The notes under the pieces: model-generated
Database searches by the model: none
What the model saw: the letters and a program-made list of their open reading frames with translations, nothing else
What the model was told of the DNA's origin: nothing
IMG/VR virus record: IMGVR_UViG_3300032731_000311
Span: 1 to 20,592 of that record
Reading direction: 5' to 3' (one strand)
DNA length: 20,592 nucleotides
Source of the DNA: a virus
Made by a program: the position numbers and the translations under genes
Shown: positions 582-19,618 of the stretch, in pieces
Position numbering within the stretch: position 1 is the stretch's first letter
How the letters are laid out: each line of letters opens with the position of its first letter

Positions 582-797
582 ATGGATACTAGAACAGGAG
601 AGATTTTTTCAATGGAGGACCTTAAAAAAAAGTTTATAGAAACTCCCGAGGAGGAGGCTTTTTTTATTCCTATTAGTCCAACACCCGAGCAATTTAAACG
701 CGGTAAGGTAAGCAGAAATGATTATTGCCCTTGCGGGAGTGGCAAGAAATTTAAAAAATGCTGTCTCCGAAAGGACGAGGAGCATAAACGAGGATAA
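582..797 (+). CDS. SEC-C motif miniprotein
   Basis: This 71-residue protein ends in a clear SEC-C zinc-binding motif, [17 protein letters not shown], with Cys at 49, 51, 60 and 61. The motif is best known from the C-terminus of SecA, where it binds zinc and contacts SecB and the ribosome, and it also occurs in many small proteins of unknown role. The first 45 residues are acidic and carry no second domain. The start ATG follows AGAGGTAG. A role as an adaptor or nucleic-acid-contact module is possible but is inference. The motif itself is unambiguous. Confidence 0.8.
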
Positions 798-5207: not shown

Positions 5208-5816
5208 ATGGCTAACCCTAAATACGAGCCGACTGATAAACACATAGCAACAGCCGAAACCCTGGCCAGCCAGGGGGCTACTAATATCGAGATAGCTAAG
5301 GCTCTAGGGATTGGGCGTACTACTTTTTTTAAACATACGCGAACATTCGCGAGCGCCTTAAAAAAAGGCCGCGAGAAATGGTGGGACGACTCAGTCGCCC
5401 AGGGAATAGAGAAAATAGGGCTAAAAAAATTAGTATTTGGTTTTGAATACACCGAGAAAACAACCGAGGAAAAATTTAATAAGTATGGCGTATTATTCGA
5501 TACTACGAAATACGTTACAAAATTCTATCCTCCTAACGTCGCGGCTATTATTTTTGCCCTTTGTAATAGGAATCCCGATAGATGGAAAAATATAAATGAT
5601 CCATTCCGAGGCCAAGGAATTACTCAGGACGTCGTCGATCAAATTGCCGCCGGCCTTACTACCCTTGACGCCGATACAGTCCCATTTCCTACGGAATCGC
5701 CGGACACTCCACCCCCAGGCCCACCGGTTCCAAGTCTTAAGCGCCGGTCGCCGGTCCCGGAAAACGCTCCTCGGGAAACGCCGCCTGTTTTACGAATCCA
5801 TAGGTCAGGTAAATAA
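5208..5816 (+). CDS. terS: Terminase small subunit
   Basis: This 202-residue protein recognises phage DNA and loads the large subunit for packaging. An N-terminal helix-turn-helix spans about 12-45 (ATNIEIAKALGIGRTTFFKH). The family hallmark KFYPPNVAAIIFALCNRNPD and RWKN lie at about 106-129. From about residue 140 the chain is Pro-rich and low in complexity. That tail (residues 130-202) is encoded in DNA that also encodes the first 73 residues of the large subunit in another frame. The start lacks a strong ribosome site; ATG 5208 is chosen because the HTH would otherwise be truncated. Gene order with terL and portal supports the call. Confidence 0.85.
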   Translation: MANPKYEPTDKHIATAETLASQGATNIEIAKALGIGRTTFFKHTRTFASALKKGREKWWDDSVAQGIEKIGLKKLVFGFEYTEKTTEEKFNKYGVLFDTTKYVTKFYPPNVAAIIFALCNRNPDRWKNINDPFRGQGITQDVVDQIAAGLTTLDADTVPFPTESPDTPPPGPPVPSLKRRSPVPENAPRETPPVLRIHRSGK

Positions 5817-8729: not shown

Positions 8730-9041
8730 ATGAAGTGGGTTTATATAGTTACTATTACGGTAGGTTTTTGGCTGAATTTACCCTGCCCCTCCTGGGAATA
8801 TAATATAATCCAACCCGACGGAGTTGATACCTTAATTTCTATCTATGATCGGGAAATGCTAGAGGATATTGTCGGCGCTCCCTGTCCCCTGGATCATGGC
8901 CGCTATACGTATTTAGAGTATCGCCGGACATTTGATAATAAATTGTGTGCAGAGGCCTTTAAAGAGAGCCTCCCGCTATATAAAGGGAAATACTTACTTA
9001 AGCGGTCCCTGGACTCTATGGAGGTTAATATTGACTATTGA
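8730..9041 (+). CDS. Small protein with hydrophobic N-terminus
   Basis: This is a 103-residue protein. The N-terminus MKWVYIVTITVGFWLNLPCP looks like a short signal peptide or anchor, with Cys19 near a possible cleavage or lipidation position although the lipobox is poor. The rest is charged, with two more Cys (52 and 73). No family is recognised. It starts 2 bases after the previous stop, 8 bases behind GGAG, and ends in TGA that lies inside the next gene. Confidence 0.5.
   Translation: MKWVYIVTITVGFWLNLPCPSWEYNIIQPDGVDTLISIYDREMLEDIVGAPCPLDHGRYTYLEYRRTFDNKLCAEAFKESLPLYKGKYLLKRSLDSMEVNIDY
9020..9025 (+). promoter_or_regulatory. Ribosome binding site deciding a TTG start
   Basis: GGAGGT lies inside the end of the preceding gene, 5 bases upstream of TTG 9031. 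No ATG or GTG lies at a suitable distance in any frame, so the site supports TTG initiation. Confidence 0.55.
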
Positions 9042-9195
9042 AGCCCAGGCCATAATTGAGGCTTATGTAGATAAATTACTTTTGGGAGGGTACTACCGTG
9101 CCGGCTCCAGGGCCGATCGTATAACCTACCTGGCTCGCCGACTAAAGAATAAACTAAATCATATAGTTGGAATAAAAGCGAATCAATGGCCGTAA
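9031..9195 (+). CDS. 54-residue protein with TTG start
   Basis: The start TTG 9031 is chosen because a full GGAGGT at 9020-9025 stands 5 bases before it. The longer in-frame ATG at 8932 would lie deep inside the upstream gene without a ribosome site. The product is a small basic helical protein (TIEAQAIIEAYVDKLLLGGY then RLKNKLNHIVG). It overlaps the genes on both sides by about 10 bases. The role is unknown; its place between portal and virion-morphogenesis genes suggests a connector or assembly accessory. Confidence 0.5.
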   Translation: MTIEAQAIIEAYVDKLLLGGYYRAGSRADRITYLARRLKNKLNHIVGIKANQWP

Positions 9196-9653
9196 AGACC
9201 GTAACGGATACTTTCGATATTCGCCTGGCTATAAAGACCTTAAAAAGGTTTACTCCGGTAATAGTAAACGACGCCGCCGATATTGTTAAAAAAGATATTA
9301 CTGCCGGGATTGAATACGGACGCGATATTAAAGGTAAACCACTCACTCCCTTACTACCGGCCACGATCAAAGCCAAGCGATCTAAAGGCGTAGAGTTTCC
9401 CCGGCGGATACTATGGGAAAAGGGTATAATGCAAAACTCCTATGTTAACCAAAGAGCTACCAGGAGGATACCTGTAGCCGTGTTAATCTGCCCGAAGTCA
9501 AGGACTGAAATAGGCGGATACCATCAAAAAGGGGAGGGAAATAATCCGGTCCGGGAATGGTTCGGAATATCTACGACCGCCCACAAAAGAATAGATGAGC
9601 ATATCAGGATAAAATTAATTGAAATACTCCGGTCCGGCTGGGGCCTTAAATAA
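9186..9653 (+). CDS. Phage virion morphogenesis protein (Mu gpG-like)
   Basis: The product has 155 residues and looks like the phage virion-morphogenesis family, which acts in tail completion or head-tail joining. The features are an N-terminal helical region, GKPLTPLLPATIKAKRSKG (50-68), and the C-terminal signature YHQKGEGNNPVREWFGIS (112-129) followed by a final helix. In Mu the gpG gene adjoins gpF; here the MuF-like gene follows directly by a one-base TAATG overlap, so the pair is kept in reversed order. The start overlaps the preceding gene by 10 bases, with only a weak ribosome site. Confidence 0.72.
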   Translation: MAVKTVTDTFDIRLAIKTLKRFTPVIVNDAADIVKKDITAGIEYGRDIKGKPLTPLLPATIKAKRSKGVEFPRRILWEKGIMQNSYVNQRATRRIPVAVLICPKSRTEIGGYHQKGEGNNPVREWFGISTTAHKRIDEHIRIKLIEILRSGWGLK

Positions 9654-11002
9654 TGCCAAGTTTCCAGACCTATGTAGATACTGAGGCAATGAAATTAATA
9701 ATAGGTTCCGAACTCGAGGAGACTATTACCAGGTTCTTAGGTGAATACCAGAAAACAGTAACCAGGTTAACGGCCGCCGGTATGCCAGCTAATCAGATTC
9801 GTAGAATAATAGAGAATGATCTCCAGGGATCGGGTCGCCTATTCGGCCAGCTAAAAAATGGGATTAGTAAGGGAGTAGGTCGAGGGGCCGGCGATATATC
9901 CGGGGAGGTCTCCGAACAGGTCCAAGTAAAAAAGAAAATTAAGAAGTTTAGATGGGTTACCGTATCCGTAAAACCCTGTCCCGATTGCTCCCCCAGGCAT
10001 AACCGCAAGGAAACTATGTCTACCTGGAGGAAAATAGGTAAACCCCGGTCCGGCTTTAGTGTCTGCCAGGGCTCCTGTAAGTGCCGCCTGGTAGCCGAGA
10101 AATACAAGGGGAGGATTAAAAAGCCTATTATCCGTCAAACCTCCTACCTTAATAGTAATATGGCCGGGAAACATAAATCTATCAAGCAAGCGGAAGCCTG
10201 GGCTAATCATAATTATAAAAATGTTCAATTTGATTATATAGGAATGGAATTACGGTCAGCTAACGACCTTAATAAACAATATAAAATACTGGCTAAGGAT
10301 TTCCCGGAGGTCTCCGATCGGCTGGAATACGTCGGGACATTCCGCAACTATATTCCTAATAAAGCCAAAACTCCAGGGTATAGTCAGAAATATTTTGCCA
10401 ATAAACGGCGGTATAAATGGGCTGGTAAACGGCGGAACTGGATAGGATTCGCTGTCCAAGACGGTTATACGATTGGGTTAAACCCTAAATATTACGGAAA
10501 CTACGACTTTTTTAAAAAGTCAGTCTCCAGGCTGGTAAATAGTGGATACCATCCTCTCGGCTGTGCTAACCCGGCGAGTATATTAACTCATGAGTGGGGC
10601 CACATGGTAGAGAATTGGATTAGGCGGGACCTGGGAAACGTAGCTGTAGCGGAATATTACGCGGCCACCGATGCAGTCGGCCTGGTCCGCTCTACATTCC
10701 AGGAATTTATAGATGCCTGGAGATTAAATAGTAAGGCCCGTTTATCAGTAAGCGAGTACTCTATGGAAAGTATGCGGGAAACCTGGGCCGAGGCCTTTAG
10801 TCAGGTGTATCATGCCAGTAACGACGTACTCCCGGAATTTTCCAGGAGAGTAAAATACTTTTTAGAGGAAATCCTAGACCGGTCGAGATGGGTTAAGCCG
10901 GTAGATGCCTGGTATGTAATAAGGGATCAGGCGGCTAAGGATAAAATAAAATATTACCTGGCGGAAATCAGGGAACTCTTAGGAATCCTCCCGCCTCAAT
11001 AG
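9653..11002 (+). CDS. MuF-like minor head protein fused to a zinc metallopeptidase domain
   Basis: This 449-residue protein has two parts. Residues ~1-100 are helical, followed by a MuF-type zinc module: Cys109 and Cys112 (CPDC), GKPRSGFSVC with Cys138, and CKC with Cys142 and Cys144. MuF/SPP1 gp7 proteins bind the portal and enter the capsid. After a basic linker (~150-180), the C-terminal part has ILTHEWGHMVE (310-320), an HExxH zincin motif with His313, Glu314 and His317. A downstream SEYSMESMRETWAEAF (367-382) has Glu376 or Glu380 as possible third ligand, matching the AEAF segment of zincin-like phage and toxin domains. MuF proteins with C-terminal toxin or enzyme domains are a known polymorphic-toxin class. 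Alternatively, the domain could be the capsid-maturation protease, since none other is visible. Domain assignment is by motif. Confidence 0.72.
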   Translation: MPSFQTYVDTEAMKLIIGSELEETITRFLGEYQKTVTRLTAAGMPANQIRRIIENDLQGSGRLFGQLKNGISKGVGRGAGDISGEVSEQVQVKKKIKKFRWVTVSVKPCPDCSPRHNRKETMSTWRKIGKPRSGFSVCQGSCKCRLVAEKYKGRIKKPIIRQTSYLNSNMAGKHKSIKQAEAWANHNYKNVQFDYIGMELRSANDLNKQYKILAKDFPEVSDRLEYVGTFRNYIPNKAKTPGYSQKYFANKRRYKWAGKRRNWIGFAVQDGYTIGLNPKYYGNYDFFKKSVSRLVNSGYHPLGCANPASILTHEWGHMVENWIRRDLGNVAVAEYYAATDAVGLVRSTFQEFIDAWRLNSKARLSVSEYSMESMRETWAEAFSQVYHASNDVLPEFSRRVKYFLEEILDRSRWVKPVDAWYVIRDQAAKDKIKYYLAEIRELLGILPPQ

Positions 11003-11013
11003 GAGATAAAGTT

Positions 11014-11205
11014 ATGTATGGAGAACGTCCAATATGTTACACTTGTTCAAGGTTTTGGAGATTAAGCTTTGATCTTCGAAAATGCGACGCTTACCCTAAG
11101 GGGGTCCCTGAGGACATTATTGGGGCCAGTAACGACCATAAGGAAAAATTCGACGGAGATCACGGTCTCCAGTATGAAAAAGGGGAGCCTCAGGACAGGG
11201 AATAA
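11014..11205 (+). CDS. Small Cys-containing conserved phage protein
   Basis: The product has 63 residues with CYTC at 8-11, Cys24 and then KGVPEDIIGASNDHKEKF and GDHGLQYE. The pattern CxxC, C-x-AYPxGIPxxI, DHxxxFxGDxGxxY recurs in small proteins encoded near head genes of tailed phages; its role is unknown to me. AGGAG overlaps the previous stop 9-13 bases upstream of the ATG. It is the last gene before an internal promoter. Confidence 0.65.
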   Translation: MYGERPICYTCSRFWRLSFDLRKCDAYPKGVPEDIIGASNDHKEKFDGDHGLQYEKGEPQDRE

Positions 11206-11260: not shown

Positions 11261-11905
11261 ATGGGTAAAGCAAAATCCGAAATAATTAATGAAACCCTCC
11301 GGGCTGTCTATTCTAAGGTAACTGGATTCGACGATGCCGAGGAGGTCCTAACTGTCCTAAAGCAAGTGGAGAGTTTGGTAGTTGACTTGGGTACTACCGT
11401 CGAGGCTTTCGGTCGTGAGAACAAAACAAAAACGACCTCAATTACTACCCTCGAAAATAAGGTAAGTACCCTCGAAACCGACCTAGCCACCGCTAAAAAC
11501 ACTATAAGCGAGTCCGACACTGAGGGACTCCAGGCCAAGATTACCACGCTCCAGACCGAGAAAACCGATTGGACTAAAGAACGATCCGACCGGGTTAAGG
11601 CACGGCTGGAGGTAATCGCTAAACACCCCCAATTTAAAACGATCCAGGAAACCGGCGTATTTAAAGGTATTTCAATCGACAAGGATACTAGTAAGGTAGT
11701 ATTTGCCGAGGACCTTAAGCCGGAGGCGATTCTGGAAATGGGTGATAAGGCCGAGGAGTATATCAAGTTAGGAGTATTTGGCAAGGTTAATGAACTGGAT
11801 ACTCCTCAGGACCAGCGCTTACACCCGGACGACAAGCCGATCGAAGTTACTGACCGTAGCTCGCTGGGTGATAAGATTACTACCGGTCTAAAAGAGTATA
11901 CCTAG
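11261..11905 (+). CDS. Probable capsid scaffolding protein
   Basis: The 214-residue product lies directly upstream of the major capsid gene. Residues ~45-115 are a long Ser/Thr-rich coiled coil (TTLENKVSTLETDLATAKNT, LQAKITTLQTEKTDWTKERS), followed by a compact alpha/beta part and an acidic C-terminus. Position, size and coiled coil match scaffolding proteins that organise capsid protein during assembly and then leave the shell. Since no Shine-Dalgarno site precedes ATG 11261 and a promoter ends 8 bases before it, translation is probably leaderless. No protease motif is seen. Confidence 0.65.
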   Translation: MGKAKSEIINETLRAVYSKVTGFDDAEEVLTVLKQVESLVVDLGTTVEAFGRENKTKTTSITTLENKVSTLETDLATAKNTISESDTEGLQAKITTLQTEKTDWTKERSDRVKARLEVIAKHPQFKTIQETGVFKGISIDKDTSKVVFAEDLKPEAILEMGDKAEEYIKLGVFGKVNELDTPQDQRLHPDDKPIEVTDRSSLGDKITTGLKEYT

Positions 11906-11942: not shown

Positions 11943-12902
11943 ATGGCCGGTATTCGTGCGGCGGACTTACAGTACGTCCTTAATGTTATACCCCTCTCAG
12001 ACTATCAAAAGGCTTTTGCCCTTGATGAAACCTTTATCAATTTAATCGGTGGGCTTAAACCCGGACCGGGTCGCCTACAAATTCCATTCCATCACGCCGG
12101 CAACACTACCGCCGGGTCGTTTATCGAGGGTGACGACCTGAGTACTGCCGGAAAACAGAGCCGTAGGCTCCTGTCTTTCGATTATAAGCGTATTTATGTA
12201 ACTGCCGGGGTCGATGGTCTCCAGGAAGCTATCGCGAATAATGGTGGTATCGTCAAAATAAATGATTTACTTAACCTCGAGGTTATGCAAGCCGTCGAGG
12301 ACCTCCTGGACGAACTTAATACCCAGACCCTTAGCGACGGGACCGGGAACTCCAGCGCAGACGTAGACGGTCTCCAGTTTCAAATTGCTGACGACAATAC
12401 CTGGGGGGGGCTGGCTCGCGCTTCTTATGCCTGGCTCCAGAGCTACGTTAACGATAACGGTGGAGCTAATCGGGCATTGACCGAGGCCCTTATGCGAACT
12501 ATGCACAATACCGCCGTAGATACCCGGAAAGCAAAATACAACGCTATATTTTGCGGGTCCGATTTATACGACGCTTACGAGGATTTAATGGGCGATCGCA
12601 AGCGTTATATTGATATGAAAGTCGGTGATATATCATTTAAAGGCCTGTCCTTTAAACAGCGTCCGCTTATCAATATTCCGGGCTTTGCCGCTAACCGGAT
12701 GGACTTTGTCCGCCGGGGTGATTTCTCCCTTAAATATCTACCTATCCAGTCGATCGACAATAAAAACCGGATAGTTAAAGGCCCCTTTAAGGTCGAGGAA
12801 GTCGCGTCCAATAGTGACGATACATATTTCAATATTATTATGTATCCTCAATTAATGTGCCTGAACCCCTGGAAGCAATTAAGCCTCCAGGATGTCGAGT
12901 AA
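11943..12902 (+). CDS. Major capsid protein
   Basis: This 319-residue protein forms the icosahedral shell. Support comes from its place after the scaffold candidate, its size, its strong ribosome site and its HK97-fold-like pattern. It has an N-terminal arm, an extended region (IPFHHAGNTTAGSFIEGDDL), a long spine-type helix (INDLLNLEVMQAVEDLLDEL), a central AMHNTAVDTRKAKYNAIFCG-like A domain and a final beta segment ending in NPWKQLSLQDVE. Unlike HK97 itself it has no long N-terminal delta domain, which agrees with a separate scaffold gene. No single invariant motif defines the family, so the call rests on several lines together. A GC-rich hairpin follows the stop. Confidence 0.85.
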   Translation: MAGIRAADLQYVLNVIPLSDYQKAFALDETFINLIGGLKPGPGRLQIPFHHAGNTTAGSFIEGDDLSTAGKQSRRLLSFDYKRIYVTAGVDGLQEAIANNGGIVKINDLLNLEVMQAVEDLLDELNTQTLSDGTGNSSADVDGLQFQIADDNTWGGLARASYAWLQSYVNDNGGANRALTEALMRTMHNTAVDTRKAKYNAIFCGSDLYDAYEDLMGDRKRYIDMKVGDISFKGLSFKQRPLINIPGFAANRMDFVRRGDFSLKYLPIQSIDNKNRIVKGPFKVEEVASNSDDTYFNIIMYPQLMCLNPWKQLSLQDVE

Positions 12903-13019: not shown

Positions 13020-13652
13020 ATGTTCAATAAATTTAAAACATTGTTTTTAGTTTTAACCCTTGTATTTTTCGGGATCGGCTCCGCTCAGGCGGGGGATTTC
13101 GATATAATTACCGGTCTATTTGACGGATCATCTACCGCGACGCTAGTAAACGCCGAGGTAGGTACTACCGCGACTATAACCCTAACTCGTAAAATCCAGG
13201 GTCGGCTCCAGTACCCGGATCGGCTCTCGTTTGAAATGCGAGCCACTGAGGCCACAGGCGACACCACAGCGCTAGTATGTGCTTTAGATTTAAGTAACGA
13301 TGGGACCTATTGGTATAGCTACGGGACCCTGGCTACTTTATCCAGTACCACAGGCGATAATACTACGACCGTCGCGAATAAGGTACTTAAGGATAGTAAT
13401 GAAAGTATGCTGGCCAGCGTGGCCGATGTGGTTACAATGGCTCAGACGGAGACTTGGACCTATGCTAACACTGATTCCAGTGATTCTCTAAAGGTAGCCT
13501 CTACGCTCTTGTCAGGGAACAATACCCACGCCTGGACGCCGACCTACGCCTCGGAGTATCCTACTTGGAAATATTGCAGGGTACGGGCTACCAAGACCCA
13601 GGACGACGATACGCTTACGGTAGCGGTGCGGTTAGTTAAAATTTTTCACTAA
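13020..13652 (+). CDS. Secreted beta-rich protein with signal peptide
   Basis: The product has 210 residues. It begins with a textbook Sec signal peptide: basic MFNKFK, hydrophobic TLFLVLTLVFFGIG and cleavage site SAQA|GD after residue 24. The mature part is Thr/Ser-rich and beta-rich, with LDLSNDGTYWYSYGT at ~91-105. The SNDGTxW motif returns in the protein at 16686-16997. A signal peptide on a gene between the capsid and connector genes is unusual, because virion proteins normally stay in the cytoplasm. It could be a host-surface modifier expressed with the late genes. GGAGG precedes the ATG by 5 bases. No enzyme motif is visible. Confidence 0.65.
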   Translation: MFNKFKTLFLVLTLVFFGIGSAQAGDFDIITGLFDGSSTATLVNAEVGTTATITLTRKIQGRLQYPDRLSFEMRATEATGDTTALVCALDLSNDGTYWYSYGTLATLSSTTGDNTTTVANKVLKDSNESMLASVADVVTMAQTETWTYANTDSSDSLKVASTLLSGNNTHAWTPTYASEYPTWKYCRVRATKTQDDDTLTVAVRLVKIFH

Positions 13653-18053: not shown

Positions 18054-18106
18054 TCGAATTCAGATCCACCGGCTTGTATAAAAACTATAATAAGGTTATA
18101 ATATGA
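18050..18106 (+). CDS. Possible 18-residue coupling micro-ORF
   Basis: An ORF of 18 codons joins two ATGA junctions: it begins in the stop of the 39-residue gene and ends in the start of the first fibre gene. The peptide starts MIEFRSTGLYKNYNK. It could be a translational bridge rather than a functional peptide. The evidence is only the doubled overlap. Confidence 0.2.
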   Translation: MIEFRSTGLYKNYNKVII

Positions 18107-18861
18107 GAAAATATTTAGCAATTCTTATAATGATAGGTGTAATTACCGGCCAGAGCGGAGAGGACCGGACCGGAACCTATATATCCGCGTTTTATAAATC
18201 CTGGTTAAATTTTACCGGTACTAGTCACGATTCGATATTAATAGCCGTTACCCGTATCCAGGACGGAGCCGGGTATTACGCTCCATTTTCCCTGGGCCAG
18301 GATAGCCTGGTTATTCACGGCTACACTCAGATTAATAAAAATTTGGTAGCCGAGAACGCGGCCGGACCCGCGATCCTGGACGAGGGGGCGACCCTCTCTA
18401 ATCCGACTTTAGTACCAAACCAGGCGGACAATAATACGGGAATAGGAAGCCAGGGCGACCAACTAGGAATTATATCGGCCGGCTCCCGTGTATTCGATAT
18501 GGATAACAATGGGTCCGGTACACTTTTATCTATGGTATCGTCCTCCTCTTTATGGTTGTCTTATGATGAATATCCTGATGCCTCGACGGAATTTCGGGCT
18601 CGCAAAGTTTTTGCTTATAGTACCAGGTCAGACGCGGGAGAGCAAGAAATAGATATACCCGCGGACAGGGTCGAATTAGTCGGTCAGCTAGGTTTTATTA
18701 TCGATTGCGACGGAAACGCGGCCTGGAACAATATTACAGTTATAGCTGATGGCGGCGGGAAAACCATAAACGGAGCCGGATCGGTTAAATTAAATACCGA
18801 TTACGGTTGGATGCTTACAATAAGTTTTAACGATTCTGTTTTTGCTACCGGATCACTTTAG
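18103..18861 (+). CDS. Exported tail-fibre-like protein, paralogue A
   Basis: This 252-residue protein begins with a signal peptide (MRKYLAILIMIGVITGQSG, cleavage probably near residue 16-20). It shares with the next two genes the block YKSWLNFTGT and VTRIQDGAGYYAPFSLGQDS, then VIHG. The NTGIGSQGDQLGIISAGS region resembles repeats of phage fibre proteins, and the C-terminal GKTINGAGSVKLNTDYGW matches a common tail-spike/fibre end domain. Tail fibres are made in the cytoplasm and do not normally have signal peptides. Either the N-terminus is a membrane or tail anchor, or the protein is exported to the host surface. The ATG overlaps a TGA (ATGA). Confidence 0.6.
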   Translation: MRKYLAILIMIGVITGQSGEDRTGTYISAFYKSWLNFTGTSHDSILIAVTRIQDGAGYYAPFSLGQDSLVIHGYTQINKNLVAENAAGPAILDEGATLSNPTLVPNQADNNTGIGSQGDQLGIISAGSRVFDMDNNGSGTLLSMVSSSSLWLSYDEYPDASTEFRARKVFAYSTRSDAGEQEIDIPADRVELVGQLGFIIDCDGNAAWNNITVIADGGGKTINGAGSVKLNTDYGWMLTISFNDSVFATGSL

Positions 18862-18871
18862 GAGTAAGATT

Positions 18872-19618
18872 ATGAGAAAATTATTAGCAATTATTTTAAT
18901 TAGCGGCCTGGTATTTGGTCAGAGCGGCGACGCGAGGGCCACAACCTCAATTAACGCCTTTTATAAATCCTGGCTCCAGTTGACCGGGACTAATAACGAC
19001 ACTATAGTAACGGACGTTACTCGTATCCAGGACGGAGCCGGTTATTATGCTCCGCTTAGCATAGGGACCGACTCCCTGGTAATTCATGGCTATACGGTAA
19101 TAGAAAAGAAGTTAACAGTCGAGGACGCGGCCGGTCCGGCGATTTTAAACGAGGCAGCCAGTATCACTAATCCGACACTATTACCCAATAAGGCCGATCC
19201 TAATACTGGTATAGGCGGCGACGGATCGGACCGCCTGAGCTTTATAGCCGGCGGGACCGAGGTAGCTTATGCTTATTCCTCCGGCGGCGTTCAATATTTT
19301 TATATTAATAGCGGTTTTGGATTCGGGGCCACTAACGTAGTACTAGCCACTTATACCCTAGACCTGGACGATAGCTTTATAGCGGCTAATCATAGCTCTG
19401 GAGGAGTTCAGACTCTTAGTCTCCCGGCCTCTCCTCCGAGTGGCTGGATTATTATTATAATTGATATAGAGGGTAACGCCTCGGGGAATACTATTACTAT
19501 AGATACGGTAGGCGCGGAAACTATTAACGGAGCCGCTAGCGTTACAATTACAACCGACTACGGCTGGAGAATAATATCCGCTTTCGGTGGCGAATATTAC
19601 GCCACTGGAGAACTTTAA
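18872..19618 (+). CDS. Exported tail-fibre-like protein, paralogue B
   Basis: This encodes 248 residues from ATG 18872, chosen because AGGAG (18860-18864) lies 7 bases before it; a longer in-frame ATG at 18842 lies inside the previous gene. The signal peptide is MRKLLAIILISGLVFGQSG. Its block FYKSWLQLTGTNNDTI and TRIQDGAGYYAPLSIGTDS closely matches paralogue A, and NTGIGGDGSDRLSFIAGGTE and ETINGAASVTITTDYGW recur. The middle (about 125-185) differs from A, as expected of receptor-facing fibre segments. The tandem position and near-identical start (ATGAGAAAAT) support recent duplication. Confidence 0.62.
   Translation: MRKLLAIILISGLVFGQSGDARATTSINAFYKSWLQLTGTNNDTIVTDVTRIQDGAGYYAPLSIGTDSLVIHGYTVIEKKLTVEDAAGPAILNEAASITNPTLLPNKADPNTGIGGDGSDRLSFIAGGTEVAYAYSSGGVQYFYINSGFGFGATNVVLATYTLDLDDSFIAANHSSGGVQTLSLPASPPSGWIIIIIDIEGNASGNTITIDTVGAETINGAASVTITTDYGWRIISAFGGEYYATGEL

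What the first reader, a model, noticed from the sequence alone, without database searches (positions are those of the whole stretch)
9653..11002. MuF-like minor head protein carrying a zincin metallopeptidase domain
The sequence shows a MuF-type Cys module (109/112/138/142/144) followed by HEWGH (313-317) and a downstream ETWAEAF glutamate segment (376-382). MuF proteins with C-terminal toxins are known, and MuF/gp7 proteins are packaged in the head. A metallopeptidase here could be injected as an effector, or could serve as the missing capsid-maturation protease, since no other protease is visible between terminase and capsid.
Basis: partly seen in the sequence, partly recalled or inferred. 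Interest (0 to 1): 0.75.

Follow-up and report, generated by a model that had tools for sequence, protein, structure and literature searches.

The report
Phage head protein carrying swappable protease
A phage minor head protein of the MuF family carries a swappable zinc-protease domain, most likely delivered into bacteria with the phage DNA, next to a small unstudied partner gene that accompanies such enzyme cargoes in many uncultured phages.

Summary
The 449-aa protein has the Cys module (109/112/138/142/144), HEWGH (313-317) and ETWAEAF (376-382). Residues 1-160 are a divergent MuF domain. Residues 169-449 form a confidently modelled zincin (pLDDT 93) whose nearest solved relatives are M34 peptidases (anthrax lethal factor catalytic core, Pro-Pro endopeptidases). 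His313, Glu314, His317 and Glu376 are invariant in 31 diverse sequences; Tyr369 and Glu380 nearly so.

The effector reading is supported; the capsid-maturation reading is not. Phages with this MuF type carry zincin, ADP-ribosyltransferase (ART) or no extension in the same slot. Two phages with 77-80% identical DNA differ exactly by zincin versus ART plus the adjoining small gene. Three zincin-MuF phages also encode a dedicated S78 or ClpP-like prohead-protease candidate.

New here: the small downstream gene (11014-11205, phrog_33375, function unknown). A scan with its motif alone returned 119 loci; 87 hold a zincin ORF, nearly all directly upstream, and most others sit behind JAB-like, ART or zeta-toxin domains. 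So one partner family serves several enzyme classes.

MuF metallopeptidase toxins are a published class (Jamet 2017). The gene is a new member; the shared partner makes it a variant. Delivery, proteolysis and partner function are inferred.

The parts
9653..11002 (+). MuF-zincin gene, 449 aa
   Evidence: open frame; relatives at 58% (L006) and 32% (L025)
9653..10132 (+). N-terminal MuF domain, residues 1-160
   Evidence: 78% identical in L006, 36-37% in L120 and L015; profile-profile match to Phage_Mu_F domains E 3e-7
9977..10084 (+). Cys module (C109, C112, C138, C142, C144) of the MuF domain
   Evidence: all five invariant in five diverse members
10157..10999 (+). C-terminal zincin domain, residues 169-449, M34-like
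   Evidence: AlphaFold2 pLDDT 93, pTM 0.92; PDB profile search: lethal factor 1.4e-6; Foldseek probability 1.0 to lethal factor, TM 0.46, E 6e-3
10589..10603 (+). HEWGH, residues 313-317 (zinc ligands His313 and His317, general base Glu314)
   Evidence: H, E, H invariant in 31 sequences; on predicted helix 307-326
10757..10798 (+). Tyr369 ... Glu376-Phe382: catalytic Tyr and third zinc ligand Glu376 by analogy with M34
   Evidence: Glu376 invariant, Tyr369 and Glu380 at least 90%; Glu376 and Glu380 on predicted helix 374-387
11001..11005 (+). AGGAG ribosome-binding-like site overlapping the stop codon, 8 nt before the partner ATG
   Evidence: direct reading
11014..11205 (+). partner gene, 63 aa, phrog_33375, CxxC...CxAYPxGxP...H
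   Evidence: phrog_33375 E 2e-5; invariant C, C, C, A, P, G, P, H in 14 members; linkage
9186..9653 (+). tail-completion-like gene directly upstream (context)
   Evidence: phrog_26 E 0.004, Phage_tail_S E 0.03; same slot in L006, L015, L025, L093, L120
6982..8511 (+). presumed portal gene (context)
   Evidence: position after TerL and 18-79% identity to the same-slot gene in five relatives; no profile match, so by position only
11261..11905 (+). scaffold gene (context)
   Evidence: Phage_scaffold E 2.7e-5, below Pfam cut-off; phrog_194 E 2e-4
11943..12902 (+). major capsid gene (context)
   Evidence: SU10_MCP E 9e-10; phrog_9953 E 3e-25

Best explanation
A MuF-family minor head protein acts as carrier: it is assembled inside the head near the portal and leaves with the DNA (inferred from MuF biology). 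Its C-terminus is an exchangeable M34-like zinc endopeptidase, probably using His313, His317 and Glu376 as zinc ligands, Glu314 as base and Tyr369 as helper, which cleaves a bacterial protein early in infection (inferred; target unknown). The gene 11014-11205 encodes a small Cys/His protein that belongs to the effector unit and is exchanged with it; it either keeps the enzyme harmless or loadable while virions are made, or protects the producing cell. Shown: domain architecture, catalytic residue conservation, predicted fold, cassette exchange, partner linkage. Inferred: packaging, injection, proteolysis, target, partner action.
For: Fold and active site: 31-row alignment, model, PDB profile and fold matches to M34 peptidases, phage minor capsid proteins of like fold. 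Modularity: same MuF type with zincin (window, L025, L093), ART (L120) or nothing (L015). Block exchange: L120 vs L093 DNA 77-80% identical on both sides, no match from MuF codon ~154 to the last codons of the small gene. Window vs L006: synonymous differences 0.75-0.81 in residues 231-449 against 0.56-0.61 in residues 1-230, with catalytic motifs kept. Partner: 87 of 119 small-gene loci hold a zincin ORF, 75 within 60 nt; others are next to ADPrib_exo_Tox 1e-18, ART, Zeta_toxin 4e-20 and JAB-like motifs. At least 32 of 53 tested zincin ORFs carry Phage_Mu_F, 4 match Phage_min_cap2. Related zincins lie in very large actinobacterial ORFs. Literature: MuF toxins, 20% metallopeptidase, 89% followed by a small ORF (PMC5576092); the MuF-domain protein gp44 of phage 80alpha is an ejection protein (PMC12323379).
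Against: No experiment shows this protein in virions, injected, or cleaving anything. Some zincins are fused to the portal (L022/L154), which cannot itself be injected, so release or an in-head role is needed there. One small family beside several enzyme classes is unusual for a classical immunity protein. Temperate lifestyle, typical of MuF toxins, is not shown: no integrase on the 32.8-kb contig with the identical gene.
Confidence: 0.75

Rival explanations
1. The zincin is a processing protease: it cleaves its own polypeptide, or portal/MuF neighbours, inside the head to free an ejectable fragment.
For: Portal-MuF-zincin single chains exist (L022/L154) and would need release. Zincin-like domains in phage and plasmid polyvalent proteins were proposed to autoprocess (PMC5512222). 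In the actinobacterial protein L047 the domain sits mid-chain.
Against: In the window the domain is C-terminal with nothing downstream to release; it is swapped for an ART in the same slot, and an ART could not do that job; MuF-only relatives exist (L015).
Confidence: 0.15
2. It is the capsid-maturation protease that trims scaffold or capsid protein.
For: No other protease was found between terminase and capsid genes; one phage protein of like fold bears the name 'Capsid maturation protease'.
Against: Dedicated S78 or ClpP-like proteases accompany zincin-MuF genes in L023, L026 and lotta8-1. Same-layout relatives without the zincin exist (L015, L120). The window has a separate scaffold gene, an arrangement that can work without proteolysis (general knowledge of SPP1-type phages). 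None of the known maturation protease families matches.
Confidence: 0.04
3. The domain is a catalytically dead remnant kept as a structural head part.
For: A few more distant members have altered motifs (L055, L119).
Against: All four key residues are invariant in the 31-row alignment while the rest of the domain diverges to about 20% identity.
Confidence: 0.05

Closest known systems
MuF polymorphic toxins of phages (Jamet et al. 2017, PMC5576092)
   Same: MuF N-terminus in the packaging module, variable C-terminal enzyme (20% metallopeptidase there), small ORF downstream
   Different: The small ORF belongs to one family shared by zincin, JAB-like, ART and zeta effectors, not an evidently enzyme-specific immunity protein; temperate lifestyle not shown
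M34 peptidases: anthrax lethal factor catalytic domain and Pro-Pro endopeptidases (Pfam ATLF, PF07737)
   Same: HExxH, then Tyr and Glu seven residues apart; best profile and fold matches
   Different: Below the Pfam cut-off (15.3 vs 27.4 bits); only a partial fold match (TM 0.46); phage MuF carrier in place of the toxin's own N-terminal parts; bacterial cells are the likely target
Zincin-like MPTase domains of phage polyvalent proteins (Iyer et al. 2017, PMC5512222)
   Same: virion-delivered context, HExxH plus downstream Glu, likeness to lethal factor reported there too
   Different: single effector on a MuF carrier rather than a many-domain chain; no match to any polyvalent MPTase Pfam model
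phrog_33375
   Same: the partner gene is a member (E 2e-5)
   Different: listed as unknown function; its linkage to effector genes is reported here

Membership tests
MuF polymorphic toxins | N-terminal MuF domain | tested here: met
   no single-sequence Pfam hit, but profile-profile E 3.2e-7, probability 93%, controls 0.1-0.4%
MuF polymorphic toxins | gene in the DNA-packaging module, near the portal gene | tested here: met
   three small genes separate it from the presumed portal, between TerL and capsid genes; portal by position only
MuF polymorphic toxins | variable, exchangeable C-terminal enzyme domain | tested here: met
   zincin vs ART vs none
MuF polymorphic toxins | small ORF directly downstream | tested here: met
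   11014-11205; linkage
MuF polymorphic toxins | toxicity neutralised by the small ORF | not testable with these tools
   needs expression
MuF polymorphic toxins | temperate phage | tested here: inconclusive
   no integrase or recombinase on a 32.8-kb contig of unknown completeness
M34 / ATLF peptidases | HExxH with downstream Tyr and Glu ligand on a second helix | tested here: met
M34 / ATLF peptidases | score above the Pfam cut-off | tested here: not met
   15.3 vs 27.4 bits
M34 / ATLF peptidases | same fold | tested here: inconclusive
   Foldseek probability 1.0 but E 6e-3, TM 0.46
capsid maturation proteases (S78, S14, U9 and others) | match to a known family | tested here: not met
capsid maturation proteases (S78, S14, U9 and others) | the only protease of the morphogenesis module across relatives | tested here: not met
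   separate S78/ClpP-like proteases in L023, L026, lotta8-1

The most novel reading that the evidence does not exclude
The phrog_33375 protein is a general partner of phage-delivered effectors: one small Cys/His fold that accompanies zincin, JAB-like, ART and zeta-toxin cargoes on MuF proteins, exchanged with each cargo, acting as a loading or silencing factor for injected enzymes. It is sometimes fused as the N-terminal part of larger proteins, and could be used to find unknown injected effectors by genome context.
Probability: 0.4. Interest if true: 0.8.

Novelty: new variant of a known kind. Interest (0 to 1): 0.6.

Why it matters
It gives a clean natural experiment for phage-delivered enzymes: near-identical backbones differing only by zincin or ART cargo plus partner. 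The partner gene is a simple genomic beacon for effector genes in uncultured phages, and may explain part of the long-noted small ORF behind MuF toxins. It also argues against treating this kind of zincin as a capsid-maturation protease.

Tried and rejected
Single-sequence Pfam, PDB, phage and plasmid searches found only weak matches. A first structure prediction with 3 rows failed (pLDDT 36) and was discarded. The small gene was first taken for a zincin-specific inhibitor; rejected because 32 of 119 loci lack a zincin hit and most of those carry other effector domains. A pretoxin-HINT domain seen upstream of a zincin turned out to be an intein with a homing endonuclease (L157, L111). A capsid-maturation role was considered and rejected. 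Profile searches for a solved MuF, portal or partner structure found nothing significant.

Full report
Observation. The reading frame 9653-11002 (+) encodes 449 aa with Cys109/112/138/142/144, HEWGH 313-317 and ETWAEAF 376-382. All are kept in L006 (HEFGH there), a relative with 58% overall identity.

N-terminal half. A single-sequence Pfam search gives no MuF match. An alignment of five same-slot proteins (A8: window, L006, L025, L120, L015) keeps all five Cys. Compared profile to profile with domains that match Pfam Phage_Mu_F, it aligns over 111 columns with E 3.2e-7 and probability 93%; two unrelated alignments score 0.1-0.4%. This is a divergent MuF domain.

C-terminal half. Searches of viral contigs with short conserved pieces found the same domain on several other MuF or portal-MuF proteins. 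The 31-row alignment leaves only His313, Glu314, His317 and Glu376 invariant; Tyr369, Glu380, Asn277 and Gly316 are at least 90% conserved. AlphaFold2 on that alignment gives pLDDT 93 and pTM 0.92; HExxH lies on helix 307-326 and Glu376/Glu380 on helix 374-387. The model coordinates could not be read, so ligand distances were not measured. The profile matches the lethal factor catalytic core in the PDB at 1.4e-6 and Pro-Pro endopeptidases weakly (0.6). Foldseek gives lethal factor at probability 1.0, TM 0.46, E 6e-3, then PPEP-3. In the viral library the best hits include phage proteins called 'Lethal factor', 'Minor capsid protein' and 'MuF-like minor capsid protein'. From general knowledge, the Tyr-to-Glu spacing of seven equals that of lethal factor. 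The Pfam ATLF cut-off is not reached, so this is an M34-like zincin, not a certified member.

Exchange. L120 and L015 share the window's gene order TerL, portal-position gene, a conserved ~80-aa gene, tail-completion-like gene, MuF, scaffold, capsid, with extra small genes in some. The MuF gene carries a zincin in the window, an ART-like domain in L120 and no extension in L015. L093 is a close relative of L120, with TerL 89%, tail-completion-like 76%, scaffold 79% and capsid 89% identical, but carries a zincin. DNA identity of 77-80% stops at MuF codon about 154 and resumes in the last codons of the small gene: effector domain and small gene were exchanged together. Between window and L006 the last 219 residues have near-saturated synonymous differences (0.75-0.81) against 0.56-0.61 in residues 1-230 and 0.49-0.64 in the other genes compared, pointing to recombination inside the gene.

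Partner gene. The 63-aa gene 11014-11205 starts 11 nt after the MuF stop with AGGAG at 11001-11005. It matches phrog_33375, unknown function. An iterated zincin profile hits an ORF in 87; 75 of the 87 lie within 60 nt of the small gene, 28 of them in a 4-nt ATGA-type overlap. 84 of 87 pass a motif check for HExxH plus a downstream Glu. After clustering at 70% identity, 74 of 104 clusters hold a zincin. Of the other loci, 12 have a JAB-like HxHP...SxxD motif upstream; Pfam on 28 upstream proteins gives ADPrib_exo_Tox (5 members), ART (3), Zeta_toxin, PARP and others. The same pairing occurs in two cultured phages: Flavobacterium phage lotta8-1 (MuF-zincin gp028 then gp029) and, outside any MuF gene, Brevibacillus phage Jenst (JENST_116 and JENST_114). 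L015-L017 (MuF only) lack it. Not every zincin locus has it: L030, L039 and L045 do not.

Role. Jamet et al. (PMC5576092) described MuF toxins, 20% with a metallopeptidase, 89.4% followed by a small ORF against 25.5% of short MuF proteins. The present gene fits that class. The capsid-maturation idea fails on comparative grounds: L023 has Peptidase_S78 (4e-32), L026 S78-type, lotta8-1 a ClpP-like protease, each near its zincin-MuF gene, and L015 and L120 keep the layout without the zincin. Autoprocessing stays possible, above all for portal-fused forms. At least 32 of 53 zincin ORFs with enough upstream sequence carry a Phage_Mu_F domain.

What is new. The small partner is one family across enzyme classes. 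It could be an immunity protein on a shared fold (as SUKH-type immunity families are, from general knowledge) or a loading/silencing factor. The sequence data do not decide. Delivery, proteolysis and target are inferred throughout.

Limits. The motif-based scans sample only sequences that fit the motif. L120/L093 is one exchange pair. The window is a fragment with no identified host, and no integrase was found on the 32.8-kb contig that holds the identical gene.

Noticed in passing
window 13020-13652, 18103-18861, 18842-19618: Late-region proteins with Sec-like signal sequences; the last two are tandem paralogs (about 71% DNA identity over 347 bp). Unusual among phage structural genes.
   Followed up: no
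window 5596-5816: Terminase small and large subunit frames overlap by 221 nt in different frames; a like overlap is present in L006.
   Followed up: no
L157:566-2365, L111:87-1886: Intein with a homing-endonuclease-like domain in the part upstream of the zincin, in or next to the MuF domain.
   Followed up: partly
L040:5362-8364: 1000-aa protein with two HExGH segments and the small-partner motif as its N-terminus; a separate partner gene follows at 8937.
   Followed up: partly
L075, L105, L117, L134, L147: Small-partner motif as N-terminal part of 300-1050 aa proteins.
   Followed up: no
L047 (Actinomadura), L170, L173: Related zincin domains inside very large bacterial ORFs that look like secreted polymorphic toxins.
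   Followed up: partly
L058, L060, L061, L078, L081, L095, L107, L121, L125, L151, L156, L158: JAB-like HxHP...SxxD domains at the C-terminus of the protein upstream of the small gene (in several a MuF Cys/His motif is visible), not matched by Pfam.
   Followed up: partly
L026:2370-2600: Partner gene lies convergent to the zincin gene here, on the opposite strand.
   Followed up: no
window 582-797 and 1648-2097: SEC-C motif protein (Pfam 9e-9) and a protein with weak endonuclease VII/HNH likeness.
   Followed up: no
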